10,363 nt of DNA. Origin: Candidatus Melainabacteria bacterium. GTDB taxonomy: Bacteria; Actinomycetota; Actinomycetes; Mycobacteriales; Pseudonocardiaceae. The stretch spans positions 1-10,363 of the forward strand of contig CAJCJE010000810.1 of assembly GCA_903970565.1 (NCBI GenBank), written 5' to 3'. Within the stretch, counting starts at the first letter, position 1. The number at the start of each line of letters is the position of its first letter. The notes beneath the pieces were generated by a model that was not told where the DNA came from, made no database searches, and saw nothing but the letters and a program-made list of their open reading frames with translations. Below, piece by piece: positions 1,325 to 10,363 of the stretch. Position numbers and translations under genes: made by a program.

Positions 1325-2539
1325 ATGTCGTCCCCAGAGCGCTGGACCGCGGCCCGGCCGGACAGCCCCGCTGCCACGGCCGCCACGCCCACGGCAGAAC
1401 AGGTGATAGCCGGTTTGCGAGCGACCAGCGAAGGCGGTGCCGACCTGGTGCAGTTGCTCACCCCGGAGGGTGAGCGGGTGACGCACCCGGACTTCGACAT
1501 CGACATCGAGCCCGCGCAACTGCGTGCGCTGTACCGGGACATGGTCCTGGTGCGCAGGGTGGACCGGGAGTCCAACGCCCTGCAACGAAAGGGCGAGCTG
1601 GCCCTCTGGGTTCCGCTGCTGGGTCAGGAGGCCGCCCAGGTGGGCGCCGGCCGCGCCATGCGGCCTCAGGACATGGCCTTCCCCAGTTACCGCGAGCACG
1701 GGGTGGCCTGGTGCCGGGGCATCGACCCGACCGACCTGCTCGGCATCTTCCGTGGCACCGACCACGGCAGCTGGGACCCGATCGAGAAGCGCTTCGGCCT
1801 CTACACCATCGTGATCGGCAACCAGGTGCTCAACGCCGCCGGCTACGCGATGGGCCAGCGCTTCGACGGCAAGGTCGGCAACTCCGACGCCGAGGGGAAC
1901 CCGGCCGCCGACGACGAGGCCACCATGTGCTTCTTCGGCGACGGCGCCACCAGCCAGGGCGACGTGCACGAGGGCTTCGTCTGGGCCGCCGTCTACGACG
2001 CGCCGCTGGTCTTCTTCTGCCAGAACAACCAGTGGGCGATCTCCGAGCCAACCGAACGCCAGAGCAGGCTGCCGCTCTACCAGCGCGCCCGTGGCTACGG
2101 CTTCCCCGGTGTCCGGGTGGACGGCAACGACGTGCTCGCCTGCCTCGCGGTCTCCCGGTGGGCGCTGAAGGAGTGCCGGCGCGGCAACGGACCGGTCCTC
2201 ATCGAGGCGTTCACCTACCGGATGGACGCGCACACCACCACCGACGACCCGACCCGCTACCGCCTCTCCGACGAGGTCGAGGAGTGGAAGCTCAAGGACC
2301 CGATCGAGCGCGTCCGCGCCTACCTCGCCCGCAACGGCCTGGCCGACGCCGCGTTCTTCGAACAGATCCAGGAGGAGTCCGACCAGTTGGCGGTGCGGTT
2401 GCGCGAATTCTGCGTCAACATCCCCGACCCGCCCCCGGACCGCATCTTCGCCAACGTCTACGCCGAGGCCAACCCGGTGCTGGAGCGTCAGCGCGAGGAC
2501 ATGCTCGGCTACCTCGCCGGCTTCGGCGGTGAGCACTGA
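1325..2539 (+). CDS. bkdA: 2-oxoacid dehydrogenase complex E1 alpha subunit (branched-chain BkdA type, or pyruvate PdhA)
   Basis: With E1 beta this subunit forms the thiamine-diphosphate enzyme that decarboxylates a 2-oxoacid and transfers the acyl group to the lipoyl arm of E2. The 404-residue product has the ThDP-binding motif GDG (205-207) ending in NN (234-235), with the GDGATSQGDVHEGF stretch typical of E1 alpha. Earlier comes PSYREHGVAWCRG, and later YRMDAHTTTDDPTRYR, the serine/threonine-rich loop region seen near the active site of this family. The ATG at 1325 is chosen over the in-frame ATG at 1292 because AGGAGAG (1312-1318) lies six bases before it. Its stop TGA overlaps the next start by one base (TGATG), so the two subunits are translationally coupled. 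An N-terminal tail of about 60 residues precedes the core. Substrate: the E1 beta sequence and the Actinobacteria-type arrangement favour branched-chain 2-oxoacids (compare Rv2497c), but pyruvate cannot be excluded. Confidence 0.92.
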   Translation: MSSPERWTAARPDSPAATAATPTAEQVIAGLRATSEGGADLVQLLTPEGERVTHPDFDIDIEPAQLRALYRDMVLVRRVDRESNALQRKGELALWVPLLGQEAAQVGAGRAMRPQDMAFPSYREHGVAWCRGIDPTDLLGIFRGTDHGSWDPIEKRFGLYTIVIGNQVLNAAGYAMGQRFDGKVGNSDAEGNPAADDEATMCFFGDGATSQGDVHEGFVWAAVYDAPLVFFCQNNQWAISEPTERQSRLPLYQRARGYGFPGVRVDGNDVLACLAVSRWALKECRRGNGPVLIEAFTYRMDAHTTTDDPTRYRLSDEVEEWKLKDPIERVRAYLARNGLADAAFFEQIQEESDQLAVRLREFCVNIPDPPPDRIFANVYAEANPVLERQREDMLGYLAGFGGEH

Positions 2540-3549
2540 TGGCCGCGCCCACCCTCGACTCCTCGGCGAAACCGCAGCAGATCACTATGGCCAAGGCCAT
2601 CAACGCCGGTCTGCGCGCGGCGATGGACGCCGATCCCAAGGTGCTCGTCATGGGTGAGGACGTCGGCAAGCTCGGCGGCGTCTTCCGGATCACCGACGGC
2701 CTCCAGAAGGACTTCGGCGAGCATCGCGTACTGGACACCCCGCTGGCCGAGTCCGGCATCATCGGCACCGCCATCGGCCTGGCCATTCGCGGCTATCGGC
2801 CGGTCTGCGAGATCCAGTTCGACGGCTTCATCTTCCCCGCGTTCGACCAGATCGTCAGCCAGCTGGCCAAGCTGCACTACCGCAGCCAGGGCAAGCTGAA
2901 GATGCCGATCGTGGTCCGGGTGCCCTTCGGCGGCGGCATCGGCTCGGTCGAGCATCACTCCGAATCGCCGGAGTCCTACTTCGCGCACACCGCCGGCCTG
3001 CGGGTGGTCTCCTGCTCCAACCCGGTCGACGCCTACTGGATGATCCAGCAGGCCATCGACTCCGACGACCCGGTGCTCTTCTTCGAACCGAAGCGGCAGT
3101 ACTACTCCAGCAAGGCCGAACTGGACACCTCGATCACCCCGCAGCCGCTGCACACCTCCCGCGTGCTGCGTTCCGGCGCGCACGCCACCCTCGCCTCCTA
3201 CGGTCCCTCGGTGAAGGTGTGCCTGGACTCGGCGGCGGCCGCGGCGCAGGACGGTATCGACCTGGAGGTCATCGACCTGCGCAGCCTCTCCCCGCTGGAC
3301 CTCGACCCGGTGTACGCCTCCGTGCGCCGCACCGGTCACCTGGTACTGGTCAGCGAATCCCCCGGCGAGGCATCGCTGAACTCGGAGATCGTCAGCCGGG
3401 TCAGCCAGGAGTGCTTCTACTCCCTTCAGGCGCCGGTGTTGCGCGTCAACGGTTTCGACACCCCGTATCCACCATCGAAGCTGGAAGAGGACTTCCTGCC
3501 CGATCTGGACCGGGTGTTGCACACCGTCGACCGCTCGCTGGCCTGGTAG
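2539..3549 (+). CDS. bkdB: 2-oxoacid dehydrogenase complex E1 beta subunit (branched-chain BkdB type)
   Basis: This is the second half of the heterotetrameric E1 component. Its 336 residues carry the transketolase pyrimidine-binding domain (about 15-190) and the C-terminal transketolase domain (about 205-325). VLVMGEDVGKLGG opens the core. DTPLAESG places Glu71 where the E1 beta glutamate activates the thiamine aminopyrimidine. FGGGIGSVEHHSES followed by SYFAHTAGLRVV marks the conserved central segment. FFEPKRQYY closes the first domain, and the EHHSES form of the central motif resembles branched-chain E1 beta subunits more than classical PdhB. The start ATG shares its A with the TGA of E1 alpha, and a weak GGTGAG (2528-2533) inside the upstream gene precedes it, as expected for coupled translation. 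The E2 gene follows after 11 bp. The subunit assignment is secure; substrate preference is inferred from sequence resemblance only. Confidence 0.93.
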   Translation: MAAPTLDSSAKPQQITMAKAINAGLRAAMDADPKVLVMGEDVGKLGGVFRITDGLQKDFGEHRVLDTPLAESGIIGTAIGLAIRGYRPVCEIQFDGFIFPAFDQIVSQLAKLHYRSQGKLKMPIVVRVPFGGGIGSVEHHSESPESYFAHTAGLRVVSCSNPVDAYWMIQQAIDSDDPVLFFEPKRQYYSSKAELDTSITPQPLHTSRVLRSGAHATLASYGPSVKVCLDSAAAAAQDGIDLEVIDLRSLSPLDLDPVYASVRRTGHLVLVSESPGEASLNSEIVSRVSQECFYSLQAPVLRVNGFDTPYPPSKLEEDFLPDLDRVLHTVDRSLAW

Positions 3550-3560
3550 GGGGATTCCCG

Positions 3561-4976
3561 ATGCCTCAGTTCAAGAAATTCCTGCTGCCCGACACCGCCG
3601 AGGGGCTCACCGAGGCGGAAATCCTGTCCTGGCACGTGAAACCGGGCCAGGACGTCGAGGTCAACACGATCCTGGTGGAGATCGAAACCGCCAAGGCCGC
3701 CGTCGAACTGCCCAGTCCGTTCGAGGGCCGGGTCACCGAACTGCTTGTCGAGGTCGGCCAGACCGTCGACGTCGGTGCCCCGATCATCGTCATCGACGTC
3801 GACCCGAACGGTGCCCCCGCCCCGGCGGCGGACCCTGCAACGTCCACTTCGAACTCCTCGGATGCCGCGAACGGCGCGGTGCCCAACCTGGTCGGCTACG
3901 GCCCCAAGGGTGCCCCGGCCCAACGCCGCCGCCCCCGCACGGCCGCCGCCCCGGCTCCGGTCACGGCCGCCCCCGCTCCGGTGGCTGCTGCTCCCGTTGC
4001 CGCGCCCGCTCCCGTTGCCGCGCCGGCACCGGTGCTCGCGCCCGCGCCGGTTGCCCTGGCTCCGGCCGGCACCACCGGTCTGGTCCCGCTCACCAAGCCG
4101 CCGATCCGCAAGCTCGCCCGCGAACTCGGCGTCGACCTCGCCGCGCTCACCGGTTCCGGCCCGGCCGGCGTGATCACCAGGGACGACGTGCAACGCGCCG
4201 CCGAAGCCGCCCCCACTCCCGGCCTCGGCCTCGCCGAGCCGGCAGCACCGGTACCGGCCCCGGCCTACGACCCGGCGACGCGGGAACGGCGGGTGCCGAT
4301 TCGCGGCGTGCGCAAGGCAACCGCCGCCGCGATGGTGGCCAGCGCCTTCACCGCGCCGCACGTCACCGAGTTCCTCACCATCGACGTCACGCCGATGATG
4401 GAGTTCCGGGCCAAACTCAAGGTGACCCCGGCCTTCCGGGACGTCAAGCTCACCCCGCTGGTGTTCGCCGCCAAGGCCGTCTGCCTTGCCGTGCAACGCA
4501 CTCCGGACGTGAACGCGACCTGGGACGAGGCGGCCGGCGAGATCGTCTACAAGTCCTACGTGCACCTCGGCATCGCCGCGGCCACCCCGCGCGGCCTGGT
4601 CGTACCCAAGATCCGCGACGCCGGGCAACTGTCCCTGCACGACCTCGCCGCCGCGATGGACTCCCTGGCCACCACGGCGCGGGAGGGCCGGACCACCCCG
4701 GCCGACATGGTCAACGGCACCATCACCATCAGCAATGTCGGCGTGTTCGGCGTGGACACCGGTACCCCGATCATCAATCCCGGCGAGTCCGCGATTCTCG
4801 CCTTCGGCGCGATCCGGGACATGCCCTGGGTGGTGGAGGGCCAGATCGTGCCGCGCAAGGTCTGCCAGCTCTCGCTGAGCTTCGACCACCGGGTGGTCGA
4901 CGGCCAACAGGGTTCACGGTTCCTGGCCGACGTCGGTGCCCTCCTGGCCGACCCGGCCACCGCGATCACCTACTGA
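3561..4976 (+). CDS. bkdC: Dihydrolipoamide acyltransferase, E2 core of the 2-oxoacid dehydrogenase complex
   Basis: E2 accepts the acyl group from E1 on a swinging lipoyl arm and passes it to CoA. The 471-residue product has one lipoyl domain (about 1-80) with the lipoylated Lys45 in EIETAKAAVELPSPFEG. An Ala-Pro-Val hinge with an RRRPR basic patch follows (about 85-172), then a peripheral-subunit-binding domain (about 176-215, with IRKLARELGVD and GSGPAGVITRDDV). The catalytic domain (about 245-471) ends in the FDHRVVDG motif, giving His443 and Asp447 of HxxxDG. The ATG at 3561 is preceded by AGGGGGA (3548-3554) at six bases, which overlaps the E1 beta stop; longer upstream frames run through E1 beta and are rejected. 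No E3 (lipoamide dehydrogenase) gene is present, so E3 must be supplied from elsewhere. One lipoyl domain per chain is as in mycobacterial BkdC. The hinge holds a short 18-bp tandem duplication (see repeat). Confidence 0.93.
   Translation: MPQFKKFLLPDTAEGLTEAEILSWHVKPGQDVEVNTILVEIETAKAAVELPSPFEGRVTELLVEVGQTVDVGAPIIVIDVDPNGAPAPAADPATSTSNSSDAANGAVPNLVGYGPKGAPAQRRRPRTAAAPAPVTAAPAPVAAAPVAAPAPVAAPAPVLAPAPVALAPAGTTGLVPLTKPPIRKLARELGVDLAALTGSGPAGVITRDDVQRAAEAAPTPGLGLAEPAAPVPAPAYDPATRERRVPIRGVRKATAAAMVASAFTAPHVTEFLTIDVTPMMEFRAKLKVTPAFRDVKLTPLVFAAKAVCLAVQRTPDVNATWDEAAGEIVYKSYVHLGIAAATPRGLVVPKIRDAGQLSLHDLAAAMDSLATTAREGRTTPADMVNGTITISNVGVFGVDTGTPIINPGESAILAFGAIRDMPWVVEGQIVPRKVCQLSLSFDHRVVDGQQGSRFLADVGALLADPATAITY
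3990..4024 (+). repeat. 18-bp-period tandem repeat in the E2 hinge
   Basis: GCTCCCGTTGCCGCGCC occurs at 3990-4006 and again at 4008-4024, identical over 17 bases with a period of 18, that is six codons (Ala/Pro/Val). It lies in the flexible Ala-Pro linker between the lipoyl and E1/E3-binding domains, where length changes are tolerated. It looks like a recent slippage duplication. Confidence 0.75.
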
Positions 4977-5023: not shown

Positions 5024-5566
5024 TTATCGGCTGCGCGGCTTCGGGATGTCGAACATGCCGCTGAGCTTGATGGCGTAGCGGATGTCGCCCTTGAACTTCA
5101 ACCGGCGCGCGGCGACCAGCCGGGGGAAGCCGACGCAGCCGGCGACCAGGTGCAGGAAGTCCGCGATGGACAGCGTCAGGGTGACCTTCGGGTCGCGGTC
5201 GATGTCGGTGCCGCTGACGCAGTCGCCGCCCTCGAAAACGGTCTGGAACCGCTGGTAGTCGATGTCGGCGCCGCAGGCGATCCGCCAGCGCACCACGCCG
5301 TTGCCGCTGGCCAGCCGGTCCGCGCGCAGATGCTGCGACATTCGGCGGAACACCTCGGTGAGCACCATTTCCCGCGCCTTCGGCGAACTGGCGACCTCGG
5401 CGATCTGCTCGTCGGAGGCGCGCGCGATCAACGTGACCAGGGTGATGGTGTCCACCCCGTCCAACGCGATCCCGGTGTCCGCCCTGGCCAGCAGATCCAG
5501 GGTCTCGATGAGCTGGGCAAGGCCACGCGGTCCCATTTTCCGCGGGTCGAGGGCCCGCGCGATCAT
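5024..5566 (-). CDS. SCP2 sterol-binding-domain protein, shorter paralogue
   Basis: This protein has the SCP2 (sterol carrier protein 2) lipid-binding fold, expected to hold fatty acyl or sterol-like ligands in a hydrophobic pocket. The 180 residues from the ATG at 5566 comprise a helical N-terminal part containing FRRMSQHLRADR (about 75-86) and a C-terminal SCP2 domain from about WRIACGADID to the end. It is clearly a paralogue of the gene just upstream: DPRK, FRRMS-HLRADR, DP-VT-T, and K-KGD near the C-terminus recur in order. It lacks the roughly 60-residue N-terminal extension of its neighbour. Five codons before the ATG (ACC ATC GAC ATC GAG) also align with the neighbour (DLDID), but no ATG, GTG or TTG lies in that stretch. 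The start is therefore uncertain: 5566 is the first conventional one, although GAGGAGG at 5598-5592 is too far from it. The gene lies 54 bp after, and in the same frame as, the upstream gene. Ligand and partner are unknown. Confidence 0.8.
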   Translation of the reverse strand: MIARALDPRKMGPRGLAQLIETLDLLARADTGIALDGVDTITLVTLIARASDEQIAEVASSPKAREMVLTEVFRRMSQHLRADRLASGNGVVRWRIACGADIDYQRFQTVFEGGDCVSGTDIDRDPKVTLTLSIADFLHLVAGCVGFPRLVAARRLKFKGDIRYAIKLSGMFDIPKPRSR

Positions 5567-5620: not shown

Positions 5621-6352
5621 CTACGAGGCCTTCGGCAGATCGAAAAGGCTGGTGAGGCCGGCGGCGAAGGCCAGATCGCCCTTGATTTTCATTTTGCCGG
5701 TCATGAACAGCACCGGGCCGGAGGCGTTGTTGGTGATCAGTTTCAGGAATTCCGCCGGCTGGATCGTGATCGTCACCCGAGGATCTCGGGTCGGCTCGGT
5801 GTTGACCGTGCAGGTGCCGTTGTCGATGACCGTCTCGTACCGGTCGTAGCCGCCGCTGCCGCTCCCCCCGGCCAGCCGCCAGTGCACCACGGCCCTGGTC
5901 GAGGCGGCGCGGTCGGCGCGAAGGTGCTCGCTCATCCGCCGGAAGACCTCGCCGAGGATGCGGGCCCGCAGTTCCGGCCGCACCATGATGCCCTCAACCT
6001 GCGAACTCGATGCCCTGGCGATGATCCTGGCGAAGGTCGGGGCGCGCATCCGGCTCAGGCTGAGGTCCGCGCCGCCCTCGGCCAGCCGGTTGAGCACCGA
6101 CAGCAGCCGGATGAACTGGTCCTTACCGAGCTTGCGCGGATCGATCGCCGCGCCGATCACGTCGATGTCGAGGTCCGGCACGGTGTCGTGAGCCGGATCG
6201 ATCCCCTCCAGAAGCTCGGCGAGCTGGGCCGGCTTCAGCTGGCCGATGGTCTCGGCGGTCAACGGCAGGTCCACCGGCTTCGGTCGTCGCGAACTCCCCC
6301 GTGGGCCGGTATTCGCCCCCGCGACCCCGGCGTCCGTCCCTGAACCTGCCAT
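5621..6352 (-). CDS. SCP2 sterol-binding-domain protein, longer paralogue
   Basis: This 243-residue protein has a low-complexity, Gly/Ser/Pro-rich N-terminus (1-30) and a short helical segment with AETIGQLKPAQLAELLEGID (about 33-52). A helical region follows that ends in FRRMSEHLRADR, then the SCP2 domain with DPRVTITIQPAEFLKLI and the family's VLFMTGKMKIKGDLAFA signature near the C-terminus. SCP2 domains bind fatty acyl chains or sterols, so a role in delivering lipid substrates to the nearby acyl-chain enzymes is a reasonable inference. There is no signal peptide or membrane segment, so it is probably cytoplasmic. GGAGGGG (6366-6360) lies seven bases before the ATG at 6352. It is the first gene of a two-gene transcript running from the operator region shared with tetR. 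The family is secure, the ligand unknown. Confidence 0.85.
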   Translation of the reverse strand: MAGSGTDAGVAGANTGPRGSSRRPKPVDLPLTAETIGQLKPAQLAELLEGIDPAHDTVPDLDIDVIGAAIDPRKLGKDQFIRLLSVLNRLAEGGADLSLSRMRAPTFARIIARASSSQVEGIMVRPELRARILGEVFRRMSEHLRADRAASTRAVVHWRLAGGSGSGGYDRYETVIDNGTCTVNTEPTRDPRVTITIQPAEFLKLITNNASGPVLFMTGKMKIKGDLAFAAGLTSLFDLPKAS

Positions 6353-6372: not shown

Positions 6373-6404
6373 CCTACTCTGGAGTAAGGCTACGTGCCAG
6401 TAGG
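6373..6404. promoter_or_regulatory. Composite tandem operator, copy 1 (SCP2/tetR divergent region)
   Basis: Two 16-bp pseudo-palindromes lie side by side: CCTACTCTGGAGTAAG (6373-6388) and GCTACGTGCCAGTAGG (6389-6404). Each has two six-base half-sites around four variable bases. The outer arms also form an exact inverted repeat, TACCTACT (6371-6378) with AGTAGGTA (6399-6406). The same architecture recurs upstream of fabG4 at 9509-9540, with 21 of 24 half-site positions identical but only 1 of 8 spacer positions. It overlaps the predicted -10 box of the SCP2 gene and the upstream promoter region of tetR. It is most likely the binding site of the adjacent TetR protein, as two cooperating dimers; that identity is inferred. 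Confidence 0.75.
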
Positions 6405-6415
6405 TACAGCGGCAA
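6387..6415 (-). promoter_or_regulatory. Predicted promoter of the SCP2 gene pair
   Basis: On the minus strand TTGCCG (6415-6410) and TAGCCT (6392-6387) are separated by 17 bp, a plausible -35/-10 pair for an actinomycete. The -10 box sits across the junction of the two operator halves, so a bound repressor would block it. The expected leader is about 30 nt. Confidence 0.5.
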
Positions 6416-6431
6416 GCCGAACCGCTAGGCT
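6403..6431 (+). promoter_or_regulatory. Possible promoter of the tetR gene
   Basis: TAGGCT at 6426-6431 is a good actinomycete -10 box, 27 bp before the ATG. The -35 candidate GGTACA (6403-6408, 17-bp spacing) is weak and touches the right end of the operator, consistent with autoregulation. Confidence 0.4.
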
Positions 6432-6458
6432 GACCGGAGTCCAGGCGAAGGGGTGATC

Positions 6459-7196
6459 ATGGCATCGCCGACATCACTGCCGTCCTCGCCGCCTGCTGGA
6501 TCGGCGGCCGGCGCGAACATCGAGCCGTCGGACAAACCGGGCCGGGCGAAGCGGCTGCCGAGGGAAGTGCGGGAGCGGCAGATCCTGGACGCCGCGGTCA
6601 CCGTGTTCTCCCAGCACGGCTATCACGGTGCCTCGATGGACGAGGTTTCCGAGGTCGCCGGCATCTCCAAGCCGATGATCTACGCCTATCTCGGCTCCAA
6701 GGAGGACCTGTTCTCCGCGTGCATCCACCGCGAGGCCACCTGCCTGCTGGAGGCGATCGTCGCCGGCATCCACCCAGGACAGCCCGCCGACGTGCAGCTC
6801 TGGCACGGGCTGCGGTCGTTCTTCGGCTTCGTCGGCGAGCACCGGGAGAGTTGGCGGGTGCTGCACCGGCAGTCGCTGGCCCAGGGTGGACCCTTCACCG
6901 AGGAACTGATGTCCATGCGGCAGCGGGCCATCACCCTGGTCGCGGCCGTGCTGGTGCGGACCGGCAACGACGAGGGCGTCGGCCATGCCGCGTCCCGCTC
7001 CGGCGAAGCCCTGGCCGCCGCGCTGGTCGGCGCGGGTGAGTCACTGGCCGACTGGTGGCTGGACCATCCGCAGGAGAGCGCCGACCTGATCGCGGTGCGG
7101 CTGATGAACCTGGTCTGGATGGGCTTCGGTGACCTGGTCGAGGACCGCGTCTGGAAACCACCGGCCGAGCCGGCCGAGCCGGCTGCTCAGCCCTGA
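6459..7196 (+). CDS. TetR-family transcriptional regulator
   Basis: This is a 245-residue DNA-binding repressor. A disordered, Pro/Ser/Ala-rich tail (1-30) precedes a typical TetR N-terminal domain: ILDAAVTVFSQHGYHGASM (about 42-60), then the helix-turn-helix MDEVSEVAGISKPMIYAYL and the conserved GSKEDLF (79-85). The C-terminal helical domain (about 95-235) would bind an inducer, in TetR proteins of lipid genes often an acyl-CoA; here the ligand is unknown. The start is ATG 6459 with AAGGGG (6448-6453) at five bases, rather than the GTG at 6453, which overlaps that site. The C-terminus is a PAEPAEPAA tail encoded by a CCGGCCGAG repeat. The gene is divergent from the SCP2 pair, and convergent with the hydratase gene with 12 bp between stops. 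The tandem palindromes upstream, repeated before fabG4, make it the probable regulator of both divergent units. M. tuberculosis also has a TetR gene (Rv0238) near its htdX-fabG4-fadA2 cluster. Confidence 0.92.
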   Translation: MASPTSLPSSPPAGSAAGANIEPSDKPGRAKRLPREVRERQILDAAVTVFSQHGYHGASMDEVSEVAGISKPMIYAYLGSKEDLFSACIHREATCLLEAIVAGIHPGQPADVQLWHGLRSFFGFVGEHRESWRVLHRQSLAQGGPFTEELMSMRQRAITLVAAVLVRTGNDEGVGHAASRSGEALAAALVGAGESLADWWLDHPQESADLIAVRLMNLVWMGFGDLVEDRVWKPPAEPAEPAAQP

Positions 7197-7217
7197 CCGG
7201 CCCGCGCCTCAGCCGGC
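7178..7217. terminator. Weak possible terminator between convergent tetR and hydratase genes
   Basis: GCCGGCTG (7178-7185) and CAGCCGGC (7210-7217) are exact inverted repeats with a 24-nt loop spanning both stop codons. With only 12 bp between the genes, any terminator must overlap the coding ends. The long loop and the GC-rich background make this a tentative call. Confidence 0.25.
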
Positions 7218-8117
7218 GCTGATCGTGCCCTCGACATGGGGGACCTCCGTCTTGCCGGCGCCGCGCGACGCACCGCGCAGCGCGAACCGGAAACCGGACC
7301 CGGCCGACTCGCTGTAGAGGGAGACCGTGGCCGGCAACAGGATCGGCCGCTTGAACCGCACGTCGATCGTGTAGGCCGGGGGTAGCCGTCCCTCGAAGAA
7401 GGCAAGACACCGCGCCGTGGACCACATGCCGTGCGCGATCGCCCGCTTGAACCCGAACAGCCGCGCGGTCAACGGATACAGGTGGATCGGGTTGTGGTCC
7501 CCGGAGACCTCGGCATACCGCCGTCCGGTGTCCCCGCCCAACCGCCACCGCGCCGCCGGCGCGCCACCGAGCGTGTCGGCGCTCCCGGCCCCGCGTTCGG
7601 CCGCGGCCCCGCGTTCGGACGGACCGGAGGAGCCGCCGCGCCGCAGGTAGGTACTCACATCGGTCCAGACCACCTCGCCGTCGGCGAGCGCCTGGCTGAC
7701 CATGTCGAACTGGGTGCCCCGCTCGTGCGGGCGCAGACCCTCGGCGTGTATCCGCAACACCAGCCGCTCCTCGGCGCCGATCGGCCGGGTCTGGCTGATC
7801 CGGTTCGCCAGATGCACCAGCCCGATCATCGGGAACGGGAAGGCCGGATCGGTCATCAGCTTGGCCTGCAACGGAAAAGCCAGGATATGCGGGAAGGTGC
7901 TCGGCAGCTGGTCGGTCAACCGGAACCCGCAGACCTGGTCGTAGGCGGCCAGCTGCTCCCGGTCGATCCGCACCCCGGTCTGTACGTAGCGCGTGTCCGG
8001 CAGTTCGTGCCCGGACCGGCCGAACCCCGGCAGCGCCCCGAGCGCGGCCCGGCCGAACAGACCGGTCAGATTCGGCGTCGAGTCGAGTTCGACGATCGAG
8101 CCAGGTTTAGTGGTCAC
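7209..8117 (-). CDS. htdX: MaoC-like (R)-specific enoyl hydratase / 3-hydroxyacyl dehydratase, HtdX-like
   Basis: This enzyme reversibly hydrates trans-2-enoyl thioesters to (R)-3-hydroxyacyl thioesters. The 302-residue product is a double-hotdog protein. The N-terminal half (about 1-155) is a degenerate hotdog domain. The C-terminal half carries the hydratase-2 motif YAEVSGDHNPIHLYPLTA, with catalytic Asp207 and His212, followed by FGFKRAIAHGMWS. A Gly/Ser/Ala-rich linker (about 160-190) joins them and contains a six-residue repeat. The GTG at 8117 is chosen because GAGGAG (8129-8124) lies six bases before it; the GTG at 8135, inside fabG4, has no such site. The Shine-Dalgarno sequence overlaps the fabG4 stop TGA (8130-8128), so the two are translationally coupled. 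Order and pairing match Rv0241c-Rv0242c of M. tuberculosis, whose products are HtdX and FabG4. Whether the substrate is CoA- or ACP-bound cannot be read from the sequence. Confidence 0.9.
   Translation of the reverse strand: MTTKPGSIVELDSTPNLTGLFGRAALGALPGFGRSGHELPDTRYVQTGVRIDREQLAAYDQVCGFRLTDQLPSTFPHILAFPLQAKLMTDPAFPFPMIGLVHLANRISQTRPIGAEERLVLRIHAEGLRPHERGTQFDMVSQALADGEVVWTDVSTYLRRGGSSGPSERGAAAERGAGSADTLGGAPAARWRLGGDTGRRYAEVSGDHNPIHLYPLTARLFGFKRAIAHGMWSTARCLAFFEGRLPPAYTIDVRFKRPILLPATVSLYSESAGSGFRFALRGASRGAGKTEVPHVEGTISAG
7586..7618 (-). repeat. 18-bp tandem duplication in the hydratase linker
   Basis: CGGCCCCGCGTTCGG occurs at 7586-7600 and again at 7604-7618, identical over 15 bases with a period of 18, that is six codons. 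On the coding strand it gives the repeated ERGAAA/ERGAGS in the linker between the two hotdog halves. The length is a multiple of three, so the frame is kept. Confidence 0.75.
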
Positions 8118-8123
8118 GGCAGT

Positions 8124-8129
8124 CTCCTC
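8124..8129 (-). promoter_or_regulatory. Ribosome binding site that sets the hydratase start
   Basis: GAGGAG on the minus strand overlaps two bases of the fabG4 stop codon and lies six bases before GTG 8117. It supports that start and indicates coupling of the two genes. Confidence 0.8.
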
Positions 8130-9477
8130 AGGCACCGAGCAGGCTCTGCCCGCAGACTCGGACGATGTTGCCGTTCACCCCGGCGGAGGCCGGACTGGCA
8201 TACCAGGCAATGGTTTCCGCGACGTCGACCGGCAGACCGCCCTGCGACATGCTGTTCATCCGCCGTCCGGCCTCCCGGATGAACAGCGGCACCGCGGCCG
8301 TCATCTGGGTCTCGATGAAGCCGGGCGCGACCGCGTTGATCGTGCCGGAGCGCTCGGCCAGTTTCGGCGCGTAGGCGTTGACCATGCCGATCACCCCCGC
8401 CTTGGACGTCCCGTAGTTGGTCTGCCCGACATTGCCGGCGATCCCGGCGATCGAGGACACCCCGATGATCCGGCCGTTGGCGCGCAACGTCTTCTCGGCC
8501 AGCAGCGCGTCGTTGATCCGCAGTTGGCTGGCGAGGTTGACCGACAGCACCGAGTCCCACCGGGCCGCGTCCATCTTGGCCAGTGTCTTGTCCCTGGTGA
8601 TGCCCGCGTTGTGCACCACGATGTCGAGACCGTCGTGCCGGGTGCCGAAGTACTCGACCAGCTTGCCGGGCGCCTGCGCGCTGGTGATGTCCAGTTGCAG
8701 CGCGGCACCGTGCACCTCGTTGGCGATCGCGGACAGGTCCGCGCCCTGGCCGGGCACGTCGAGGCAGACCACGTGCGCGCCGTCGCGGCGCAGCACCCGC
8801 GCGATGGCCGCGCCGATCCCTCGGGAGGCCCCGGTCACCAGCGCGACCTTGCCGGCCAGCGGATGCTCCCAGTCCTGGGGCGTCACCAACTCGCCCGTCG
8901 GCACGCCGATCCGCACCACCTGGGCGTCCACGTAGGCCGACTTCGCCGAGGCGAGGAAGCGCAGCGTCGAGGAGATCGCCCCCTCCGCGCCGGGAGCCAC
9001 GTAGACCAGTTGCGCGGTCGCGCCGCGTTTGAGTTCCTTGCCCACCGAGCGGGTGAATCCCTCCAGCGCCCGCTGGGCGATCCGCTCCGCCGCGTCCGTG
9101 ATCCCCTCCGGCGGCGTGCCGAACACCAGCACCCGGCCGCCGGCCCGCACCCGGCGGATCACGGGGTGGAAGAAGGCGTGCAGTTCACGCAGGTGATCGG
9201 GCCCGGTGATCCCGGTCGCGTCGAAGACCAGCGCGCCGTAGCGCTCGCCGTCCTCCCCGACCGACTTCGCCAGCTCCGCGTCGGCCTCGGTCAGCGTCTG
9301 GGTGATCGACTCACCCAGCCGGCCACCGGGAGCGCCGCCGAGCAGGGCCGCTCCGGTCAGCAACGACTGGCCGGGTTCGTAGCGGCGTAGTGCGATGGGA
9401 TCGGGCAGGCCCAGCCGGCTCACCACCAGCCTGCCGACGGCCGAGGTCGCGAACTGCTGGTACCGATCCGAAGTCAT
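8128..9477 (-). CDS. fabG4: High-molecular-weight 3-oxoacyl thioester reductase, FabG4 type
   Basis: This short-chain dehydrogenase reduces 3-oxoacyl thioesters to (R)-3-hydroxyacyl forms. At 449 residues it is about 200 longer than ordinary FabG. The N-terminal part (about 1-205) is the flavodoxin-like domain of the high-molecular-weight FabG family, with no cofactor motif visible. The C-terminal SDR domain has TGASRGIG (215-222) for the dinucleotide, CLDVPG at the end of the second strand, NAGITRD, and the catalytic Ser342, Tyr355 and Lys359 in SSIAGIAGNVGQTNYGTSK. An acidic residue after the second strand favours NADH, as known for M. tuberculosis FabG4. The ATG at 9477 has only a weak AGGG upstream. 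The gene leads a two-gene unit with the hydratase, divergent from the thiolase. The product of this reductase is the substrate of the hydratase in the dehydrating direction, so the two act in successive steps. Confidence 0.93.
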   Translation of the reverse strand: MTSDRYQQFATSAVGRLVVSRLGLPDPIALRRYEPGQSLLTGAALLGGAPGGRLGESITQTLTEADAELAKSVGEDGERYGALVFDATGITGPDHLRELHAFFHPVIRRVRAGGRVLVFGTPPEGITDAAERIAQRALEGFTRSVGKELKRGATAQLVYVAPGAEGAISSTLRFLASAKSAYVDAQVVRIGVPTGELVTPQDWEHPLAGKVALVTGASRGIGAAIARVLRRDGAHVVCLDVPGQGADLSAIANEVHGAALQLDITSAQAPGKLVEYFGTRHDGLDIVVHNAGITRDKTLAKMDAARWDSVLSVNLASQLRINDALLAEKTLRANGRIIGVSSIAGIAGNVGQTNYGTSKAGVIGMVNAYAPKLAERSGTINAVAPGFIETQMTAAVPLFIREAGRRMNSMSQGGLPVDVAETIAWYASPASAGVNGNIVRVCGQSLLGA

Positions 9478-9486
9478 GGTGACCGC

Positions 9487-9500
9487 CCTGTCTCGACAGG
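9487..9500. promoter_or_regulatory. 14-bp inverted repeat in the fabG4 leader
   Basis: CCTGTC (9487-9492) and GACAGG (9495-9500) are exact inverted repeats two bases apart, ending ten bases before the fabG4 ATG. It may be an extra operator or, in the mRNA, part of a structure near the weak ribosome binding site. It has no counterpart in the SCP2 leader. Confidence 0.35.
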
Positions 9501-9508
9501 CCCACGAG

Positions 9509-9540
9509 CCTACTGGCTAGTAAGCCTACTCGTGGGTAGG
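9509..9540. promoter_or_regulatory. Composite tandem operator, copy 2 (fabG4/thiolase divergent region)
   Basis: CCTACTGGCTAGTAAG (9509-9524) and CCTACTCGTGGGTAGG (9525-9540) are two adjacent 16-bp pseudo-palindromes built exactly like those at 6373-6404. The element lies in the same orientation relative to the minus-strand gene and with the same offset to its -10 box (14-19 bases from the left end in both copies). An additional 8-bp inverted repeat, CCCACGAG (9501-9508) with CTCGTGGG (9529-9536), overlaps it. It is probably a site of the TetR protein encoded 2.3 kb away, which is an inference. Confidence 0.75.
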
Positions 9541-9594: not shown

Positions 9595-10363
9595 ATGGCC
9601 TCGAACGCCCCAGGTCTGCGACGGGTCGCCGTACTCGGCGGGAACCGCATTCCCTTCGCCCGGTCCAACGGCCCCTATGCCACCGCCTCCAACCAGGACA
9701 TGTTCACCGCCGCGCTGGACGGCCTGGTCAGCCGGTTCGGCCTCCAGGGCGAGCGGCTCGGTGAGGTCACCGGCGGCGCGGTGCTCAAGCACAGCAGCGA
9801 CTTCAACCTGATCCGCGAATGCGTCCTGGGCAGCCAGCTCTCCGCCGACACCCCCGGCCTGGACGTGCAGCAGGCCTGCGGCACCGGCCTCGCCGCGATC
9901 ATCGGCACCGCGAACAAGATCGCGCTCGGCCAGATCGAGGCCGGCATCGCCGGCGGCGTCGACACCGCCAGCGACGCGCCGATCGGCGTCAACGAGGACC
10001 TGCGGGAGATCCTGCTGCGGCTCAACCGCACCAAGGACGTCGCGGGCCGGCTGCGCCTGCTCGCCAGGTTGCGCCCCGGCCAATTGGTGCCGAACATCCC
10101 GCGCAACGCCGAACCGCGCACCGGCCTGTCCATGGGCGACCATGCCGCGATCACCGCGAAGAAATGGGGCATCGGCCGCGAGGAGCAGGACGAACTTGCC
10201 GCTGCCAGCCATCAGAAGCTCGCCGCCGCCTACCAGCGCGGCTTCTTCGACGACCTGATCACCCCGTTCCAGGGCCTCTCGCGCGACCAGAACCTCCGGC
10301 CGGACTCCAACGCCGAGAAGCTCGCCAGGCTCAAGCCGGCCTTTGGCGGCCAGGACGGCACGA
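9595..10363 (+). CDS. fadA2: Acetyl-CoA acyltransferase (thiolase), FadA2/FadI-like, C-terminus cut by window edge
   Basis: Thiolases cleave 3-oxoacyl-CoA with CoA to give acetyl-CoA and a shortened acyl-CoA, the last step of beta-oxidation, or run the reverse condensation. The visible 256 residues cover the N-terminal thiolase domain of a protein expected to be about 430 long. RIPFARSNGPYA opens the fold, and VQQACGTGLAAI holds the nucleophilic Cys95. AGIAGGVDTASDAPIGV is the typical segment after it, and LSMGDHAAITAKKWGI followed by the DELAAASHQKL helix resembles the FadI branch. The His and second Cys of the active site lie beyond the window. GGAGGA (9584-9589) is five bases before the ATG at 9595. 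It is divergent from fabG4 across the shared operator, the arrangement of Rv0242c/Rv0243 in M. tuberculosis. No disruption is visible. Confidence 0.92.
   Translation, partial: MASNAPGLRRVAVLGGNRIPFARSNGPYATASNQDMFTAALDGLVSRFGLQGERLGEVTGGAVLKHSSDFNLIRECVLGSQLSADTPGLDVQQACGTGLAAIIGTANKIALGQIEAGIAGGVDTASDAPIGVNEDLREILLRLNRTKDVAGRLRLLARLRPGQLVPNIPRNAEPRTGLSMGDHAAITAKKWGIGREEQDELAAASHQKLAAAYQRGFFDDLITPFQGLSRDQNLRPDSNAEKLARLKPAFGGQDGT

What the first reader, a model, noticed from the sequence alone, without database searches (positions are those of the whole stretch)
6373..9540. A 32-bp tandem operator shared by two divergent promoter regions defines a local TetR regulon
Seen: two adjacent 16-bp units, CCTACT-N4-AGTAAG then SCTACK-N4-RGTAGG, occur at 6373-6404 and 9509-9540. 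Half-site bases match at 21 of 24 positions, spacer bases at only 1 of 8, which is the pattern of a protein-binding site rather than of duplicated DNA. The minus-strand -10 boxes of SCP2 and fabG4 fall at the same offset in each copy. Known: TetR dimers bind such palindromes, and some (QacR) bind as pairs of dimers. Inferred: the TetR protein at 6459-7196 represses itself, the SCP2 genes, fabG4-htdX and the thiolase. A caveat is that part of the conserved centre is also the -10 box.
Basis: partly seen in the sequence, partly recalled or inferred. Interest (0 to 1): 0.72.

Follow-up and report, generated by a model that had tools for sequence, protein, structure and literature searches.

The report
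TetR repressor's paired fatty-acid operators
Two paired palindromes in front of lipid genes are almost certainly docking sites for the repressor encoded between them, which appears to control a complete fatty-acid breakdown cycle in many actinobacteria.

Summary
The 32-bp pairs are real. In the window's own draft genome the two-unit pattern (up to 3 mismatches) occurs only at these two places; the backward control never matches. In 80 loci of named relatives, 244 units (10 or more of 12 bases) lie in 845 kb: 127 before tetR, 113 before fabG4, 4 elsewhere; Markov controls give 2-6. Half-sites are conserved, spacers much less.

The regulon is not local. An unlinked operon of two acyl-CoA dehydrogenases carries units in 18 of 18 orthologues found, a degenerate pair in the own genome included. 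With htdX, fabG4 and fadA2 this makes a full beta-oxidation cycle. Where fabG4/fadA2 lies 27-62 kb from tetR, the pair is still there. In another family 30 of 30 fabG4 genes carry a unit. Units before fabG4 co-occur with this TetR (16/2/0/13).

One 16-bp palindrome is the unit; pairs in 16-bp register are one form of it. I read the TetR as an autoregulated, lipid-responsive repressor. Binding, sign and ligand are inferred. No description was found in ten literature searches.

The parts
6373..6388 (+). operator unit A1, CCTACT-CTGG-AGTAAG, in the SCP2/tetR divergent promoter region
   Evidence: one or two cores in the orthologous region of 77 of 80 loci
6389..6404 (+). operator unit A2, GCTACG-TGCC-AGTAGG, adjacent to A1 in 16-bp register
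   Evidence: two cores in 71 of 80 loci, spacing 16 bp (60) or 15 bp (11)
9509..9524 (+). operator unit B1, CCTACT-GGCT-AGTAAG, in the fabG4/fadA2 divergent promoter region, 31 bp from the fabG4 ATG
   Evidence: unit present in 66 of 67 testable loci, and in the 67th on closer look
9525..9540 (+). operator unit B2, CCTACT-CGTG-GGTAGG, adjacent to B1, 54 bp from the fadA2 ATG
   Evidence: 48 of 65 loci have two cores, all 16 bp apart
6459..7196 (+). TetR-family regulator (TetR_N + TetR_C_46), the proposed repressor; S70, K71, P72, M73, Y75, Y77 invariant in 44 homologues
5621..6352 (-). SCP2-type lipid carrier protein, proposed target; operator ends 20 bp before its ATG
5024..5566 (-). second SCP2-type protein, downstream on the same strand, probably co-transcribed
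   Evidence: position
7209..8117 (-). htdX: MaoC-type hydratase/dehydratase, proposed target (with fabG4)
8128..9477 (-). fabG4: high-molecular-weight 3-oxoacyl reductase / 3-hydroxyacyl dehydrogenase, proposed target
   Evidence: NF006110, 676 bits, cut-off 410
9595..10362 (+). fadA2-type thiolase (cut by the window end), proposed target

Best explanation
The two 32-bp elements are operators of the TetR-family protein encoded at 6459-7196. The binding unit is the 16-bp palindrome CYTACT-N4-AGTARG (one TetR dimer each). Here two units stand in 16-bp register, so that two dimers probably bind side by side. They overlap the promoters of both divergent gene pairs and shut off tetR itself, the SCP2 genes, fabG4-htdX and the fadA2 thiolase. 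The same protein also controls an unlinked operon of two acyl-CoA dehydrogenases. Together the targets are all four steps of a beta-oxidation cycle (dehydrogenase, MaoC-type hydratase, FabG4 dehydrogenase, thiolase) plus lipid carriers. The likely signal is a fatty acyl-CoA that releases the protein. Shown here: the operators, their conservation, their placement, and their co-occurrence with the TetR. Inferred: binding by this TetR, repression rather than activation, two dimers per pair, and the ligand.
For: Own genome: only two places at up to 3 mismatches, control 0. 80 named loci (best 80 of 126): 240 of 244 units are at the tetR or fabG4 promoter, against 2-6 units in all in the five control replicates. 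Spacings are 15-16 bp at tetR and 16 bp at fabG4. Order-wide two-unit pattern at up to 1 mismatch: 29 of 397 genomes, all in the same family (29 of 79; 0 of 318 outside), control 0. Unlinked acyl-CoA dehydrogenase operon: 18 of 30 genomes have an orthologue and 18 of 18 carry one or two units upstream, own genome included; 18 of 18 have a second acyl-CoA dehydrogenase directly downstream. In three genomes fabG4/fadA2 lies 27-62 kb from tetR and both places keep units. fabG4 searches blind to the motif: unit with TetR orthologue 16, unit without 2, no unit with TetR 0, neither 13 (from; the 13 rechecked over the fetched flanks). A second family: 30 of 30 fabG4 promoters carry a unit, 29 of them with all 12 bases; TetR homologue within 12 kb in 18 of 20 examined, and 11 of those 18 have a unit at the tetR start. 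Position: 20 and 31 bp before the left genes' ATG, 54 bp before both right genes' ATG, where bound protein would be expected to block transcription.
Against: No binding or expression data exist. FasR, a distant relative, is an activator, so the sign is not proven. Three TetR loci have no core upstream of tetR (L082, L089, L095), nor does G012. G070 and G184 have units at fabG4 with no TetR orthologue found, and no TetR was seen within the stretch fetched in 2 of 20 genomes of the second family; 7 of the 18 linked TetR genes there have no unit scoring 10 or more at their start. In the own genome the acyl-CoA dehydrogenase pair is degenerate (TTTACC-N4-AGTAGG, TATACT-N4-GGTAGA), and it is not found by the two-unit search. 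The own-genome one-unit search gives fewer hits than its control (33 against 57). The DarR operator shares the core TACT-N4-AGTA, so the core alone does not identify the protein. In one search, G005 and G163 are counted as having the TetR although only a fragment and a frame-broken copy were found, G005's unit is weak (9 of 12), and G357's TetR match runs through two stop codons; the genomes were hand-picked and are related, so the printed P-value overstates the evidence.
Confidence: 0.86

Rival explanations
1. The units are operators of a different regulator with the same TACT-N4-AGTA core (a DarR-like or paralogous TetR), and the linked TetR is a bystander.
For: DarR operators read ATACT-N4-AGTAT (PMC10636190, passages). 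A pair also stands between an OYE/FadH-type reductase and a paralogous TetR (31% identity) in G009 (L179). G070 and G184 have units without a TetR orthologue found.
Against: Cores stand at the tetR promoter itself in 77 of 80 loci. Of 15 genomes with fabG4 but no TetR orthologue found, 13 have no unit before fabG4, while 16 of 16 with it have one. The bases flanking the core are C-C or C-T, not A as in DarR.
Confidence: 0.08
2. Same protein and sites, but it activates its targets, as FasR activates fas-acpS.
For: The closest named model is FasR (NF053731, 95.8 bits against a cut-off of 330). PMC7382501 (passages) describes FasR as an activator that acyl-CoAs of C16 and longer take off DNA.
Against: Units lie within 20-54 bp of start codons on both sides, where they should overlap the promoter core, and at the tetR promoter itself; the same paper says the vast majority of TetR-type regulators are repressors (passage).
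Confidence: 0.1
3. The two 32-bp elements are duplicated DNA or chance palindromes, or are kept only as -10 elements.
For: A TAGNCT hexamer is created at the junction of the two units on the minus strand in both copies.
Against: Spacers differ while half-sites stay; enrichment far above control; single units, which lack the junction, are also conserved.
Confidence: 0.01

Closest known systems
FasR of mycobacteria (NF053731; PDB 6O6N, 6O6O, 6O6P)
   Same: TetR fold with similarity over residues 26-222; FasR is a lipid regulator that senses long-chain acyl-CoA (PMC7382501, passages); serine-lysine-proline at the start of the recognition helix in both
   Different: Model score 95.8 bits, cut-off 330; FasR activates fas-acpS through three inverted repeats; here the targets are beta-oxidation-type genes
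TetR-like protein of PDB 3F1B (Rhodococcus, recalled)
   Same: Best solved relative, E 8e-43 over residues 28-224; same ISKPM-Y-Y motif
   Different: No function or operator is given in the hit tables
DarR of Mycobacterium smegmatis
   Same: Operator core TACT-N4-AGTA; a lysine of the recognition helix reads a TxC motif; two dimers per operator (PMC10636190, passages)
   Different: DarR dimers share one 20-bp site; here separate 16-bp palindromes stand in tandem. Flanking bases differ. DarR binds c-di-AMP and cAMP
QacR-type paired dimers
   Same: More than one dimer on one operator
   Different: QacR binds as a tetramer on one 28-bp palindrome (PMC4482099, passage); here units do not overlap, and single units occur
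TetR-type fatty-acid degradation regulators (Bacillus FadR, PsrA; functions recalled)
   Same: TetR control of beta-oxidation genes
   Different: Weak model scores only (NF053878 40.1 of 200; PsrA model NF053516 19.4 of 300)

Membership tests
TetR family | TetR_N helix-turn-helix domain over the Pfam cut-off | tested here: met
   PF00440 57.6 bits, cut-off 24; PF21943 80.4 bits, cut-off 27
TetR family | All-helical fold with N-terminal DNA-binding domain | tested here: met
   AlphaFold2 model with nine helices and no strands, mean pLDDT 81; comparison with solved folds could not be run
TetR family | Palindromic operator at its own divergent promoter | tested here: met
   cores upstream of tetR in 77 of 80 loci; binding itself not tested
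FasR (equivalog NF053731) | Score over the curated cut-off of 330 bits | tested here: not met
   95.8 bits
FasR (equivalog NF053731) | Controls fas-acpS | not tested
   fas-acpS promoters were not examined
DarR | Operator ATACT-N4-AGTAT | tested here: not met
   consensus is C[C/T]TACT-N4-AGTA[A/G]G
DarR | Binds c-di-AMP | not testable with these tools
   needs a binding assay
QacR-type cooperative pair | Two dimers on one shared palindrome | tested here: not met
   unit centres 15-16 bp apart, units adjacent; single units common
Acyl-CoA-responsive lipid regulator | Acyl-CoA releases it from DNA | not testable with these tools
   inferred from targets and FasR relatedness

The most novel reading that the evidence does not exclude
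This TetR is an uncharacterised master repressor of an (R)-3-hydroxyacyl beta-oxidation route across Mycobacteriales. It reads an operator code in which one, two or three 16-bp palindromes stand in 16-bp register, the copy number setting how tightly each step is held. Its mycobacterial counterpart (the regulator beside fabG4, Rv0238 by recalled gene order) would be the missing regulator of fabG4-htdX and fadA2.
Probability: 0.4. Interest if true: 0.65.

Novelty: new member of a known kind. Interest (0 to 1): 0.52.

Why it matters
It gives a regulator for which no study was found a defined DNA target and a coherent regulon: all four steps of a beta-oxidation cycle plus lipid carriers. The operator is conserved well beyond this family. 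FabG4 and HtdX are studied as drug targets in mycobacteria, yet the FabG4 review searched here (PMC6008564) contains no occurrence of 'regulator' or 'operon'. Rv0238 is one of only five TetR regulators kept in all mycobacteria analysed when M. leprae is included (PMC4482099, passage), and that paper's motif table does not list it. If the link to Rv0238 (gene order, recalled) holds, its role becomes testable in harmless relatives.

Tried and rejected
Own-genome one-unit hits (33 places, against 57 for the backward control) are at chance as a group. Six of them were looked at: four lie outside the listed open frames, and one of these, before a DUF4442 gene, is kept as a candidate. The pyruvate/branched-chain dehydrogenase genes (1325-4976) were considered as targets: no unit lies before them. 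FasR equivalence was rejected by score. Rv0158 was considered as a regulator of fabG4/htdX: the eLife paper reports lower fabG4 and htdX in its knockout, but its motif is YGGCGGBGMCGGCGG (PMC10501769, passages), which differs. MadR was considered and its paper searched for a motif; no letters were given in the passages seen. L046 looked like the one fabG4 locus without a unit, but its pair at 15-46 lies 15 bp before the fabG4 ATG, outside my search margin. G316 looked like an exception, but its unit lies about 203 bp upstream of fabG4, just outside the margin; the 13 loci counted as 'no unit' were therefore rescanned over their whole fetched stretch, with no core nearer than 1.3 kb upstream. 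Structure comparison with the PDB could not be run.

Literature: ten searches of the open PMC library listed no paper that I could identify as describing this TetR or operator; subscription journals are mostly absent from it. What I saw of each paper: passages only for PMC8872791, PMC5541348, PMC10636190, PMC10501769, PMC7851686, PMC7382501, PMC12687858, PMC4482099 and PMC6008564; for all others the search listing only. Names recalled, from no call: the gene order Rv0238-Rv0244c, the identity of the second family as Mycobacteriaceae, the source of 3F1B, and the workings of QacR, PsrA and FadR beyond the passages cited.
Full report
Observation. The two 32-bp elements lie exactly where stated and have the stated sequences. 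Half-sites agree at 21 of 24 positions and spacers at 1 of 8. The window belongs to a draft genome of 4.86 Mb in 1020 contigs, 75% complete. A search of it with the two-unit pattern at up to 3 mismatches returned only these two places, and the backward control returned none. A one-unit search at up to 2 mismatches is not informative: 33 places against 57 in the control.

Who the neighbours are. The genes are a TetR regulator (PF00440 57.6 bits, PF21943 80.4 bits), two SCP2-type proteins, a MaoC-type hydratase (htdX), a high-molecular-weight FabG (fabG4; NF006110 676 bits, cut-off 410) and a fadA2-type thiolase. The TetR is not the FasR equivalog (95.8 bits, cut-off 330). Its best solved relative is 3F1B (E 8e-43), then 6O6P (E 6e-21), which is FasR. 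In an alignment of 44 homologues S70, K71, P72, M73, Y75 and Y77 are invariant. An AlphaFold2 model has nine helices and mean pLDDT 81.

Conservation in named relatives. The best 80 of 126 relatives of the TetR were fetched with up to 5 kb on each side. Scoring every position against CCTACT-N4-AGTAGG gave 244 places with at least 10 of 12 matches in 845 kb: 127 in the tetR/SCP2 region, 113 before fabG4, and 4 elsewhere, of which two are the fabG4 pair of L046. Five Markov-shuffled replicates gave 5, 2, 5, 5 and 6. By that score the tetR region is positive in 76 of 80 loci and the fabG4 region in 66 of 67 testable loci (67 with L046). With the looser core TAC-N6-GTA the tetR region has two cores in 71, one in 6 and none in 3 loci (L082, L089, L095), with spacing 16 bp (60) or 15 bp (11). 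The fabG4 region has two in 48 and one in 17 of 65, all pairs at 16 bp. Many of these loci are close relatives (22 of the 80 records are titled Lentzea), so the counts are not independent. A set hand-picked for spread gives half-site/spacer/flank identities of 0.90/0.41/0.40 (20 loci) and 0.93/0.54/0.33 (17 loci).

Wider scans. Across 397 genomes of the order, the pattern at up to 1 mismatch hit 29, all among the 79 of the same family and none of the 318 outside it; control 0. At up to 3 mismatches it hit 33 of 51 selected genomes (the own and 50 of the family); control 0. In G099, G033 and G015 a pair between fabG4 and fadA2 lies 27, 47 and 62 kb from tetR, which has its own pair. The operator thus stays with its genes when they are apart, which argues for control in trans.

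A third, unlinked target. Four extra two-unit hits (G046, G001, G018, G011) precede acyl-CoA dehydrogenase genes of 441-452 aa. A search for that protein, blind to the motif, found an orthologue in 18 of 30 genomes. All 18, the own genome included, have one or two cores just upstream: eight with two cores (six at 16 bp, one at 24, one at 26) and ten with one. The own copy is degenerate (L212:1247-1278, 56 bp before the ATG at 1335). All 18 have a second acyl-CoA dehydrogenase directly downstream (the other 17 are 74-82% identical to the own one). Dehydrogenase, hydratase, 3-hydroxyacyl dehydrogenase and thiolase make a whole beta-oxidation cycle. FabG4 of M. tuberculosis is NADH-specific, binds a CoA substrate, and its reductase direction is about four times faster than the dehydrogenase direction (PMC6008564, passages), so the cycle could also run toward elongation.

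Outside the family. A motif-blind fabG4 search in 30 genomes of other families found it in 14. Units stand before fabG4 in L251-L255 and L261, and in G316 at about 203 bp. These seven genomes have a TetR homologue within about 7 kb of fabG4 (positions; for G316 and G303); the match in G357 runs through two stop codons. The other seven have no core within 1.3 kb upstream of fabG4 and no linked TetR at E 1e-30; G333 has only an unlinked 35% homologue. In L265-L268 the tetR gene has two units, or three in L265, in 16-bp register. In one further family (30 genomes of 7 genera, two of them already in the former set), fabG4 was found in 30 of 30, and every one has a unit within about 205 bp upstream, 29 with all 12 half-site bases and one with 11. 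Only two other places scoring 10 or more occur in 130 kb. Four of the 30 show a second, weaker core exactly 16 bp away. Of 20 of these genomes read further, 18 have a TetR homologue within 12 kb of fabG4 on the same relative strand, and 11 of the 18 have a unit at its start.

Does the operator follow the regulator? Combining: unit and TetR orthologue 16, unit without 2 (G070, G184), no unit with TetR 0, neither 13. The table was filled by hand. G005 (fragment of the TetR, weak unit of 9 of 12) and G163 (frame-broken copy) are counted as having both; counting their TetR as absent gives 14/4/0/13. The genomes were chosen partly for lacking the TetR and are related, so I take this as strong but not exact evidence.

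Mechanism. Units lie 20 bp (SCP2), 31 bp (fabG4) and 54 bp (tetR and fadA2) from start codons, where a bound protein should block transcription. Single units are common, so one 16-bp palindrome is the likely site of one dimer. Centre spacing of 15-16 bp places two dimers side by side, about one and a half turns apart. This differs from the DarR arrangement, in which two dimers share one 20-bp site (PMC10636190, passages). DarR's lysine and glycine contact a TxC motif; the invariant K71-P72 here and the TAC in the half-sites are consistent with the same contact, which is an inference. The signal is probably an acyl-CoA, by analogy with FasR (PMC7382501, passages).

Verdict. It is a new member of a known kind: a TetR lipid regulator with an unusual but not unprecedented multi-dimer operator. 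I found no paper on it in ten searches of the open library; subscription journals are mostly missing there.

Noticed in passing
L012:1501-1516 (G000:C243:5137-5152): A near-match unit (CCTACTCACGAGTAAC) stands 48 bp before an open frame with a DUF4442 domain (PF14539, 157 bits) in the own genome: candidate further target.
   Followed up: partly
L179:2713-2744 (G009:C11): A unit pair stands between an OYE/FadH-type reductase and a paralogous TetR (31% identity), suggesting that paralogues share the operator type.
   Followed up: partly
L265, upstream of its TetR (G300): Three units in uninterrupted 16-bp register before a distant TetR homologue.
   Followed up: no
L181:3190-3221 (G012): A unit pair downstream of an S1/helix-hairpin-helix protein and about 1 kb before an acyl-CoA dehydrogenase frame; this genome's TetR has no core upstream.
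   Followed up: partly
G163:C84:163838-164474: The TetR orthologue is found as three separate pieces on the contig that also holds a fabG4 keeping its unit; sequencing error or a recent pseudogene.
   Followed up: no
window 1325-4976: A pyruvate/branched-chain dehydrogenase E1-alpha, E1-beta, E2 set adjoins the regulon in this and many related loci but has no operator unit in the window.
   Followed up: partly
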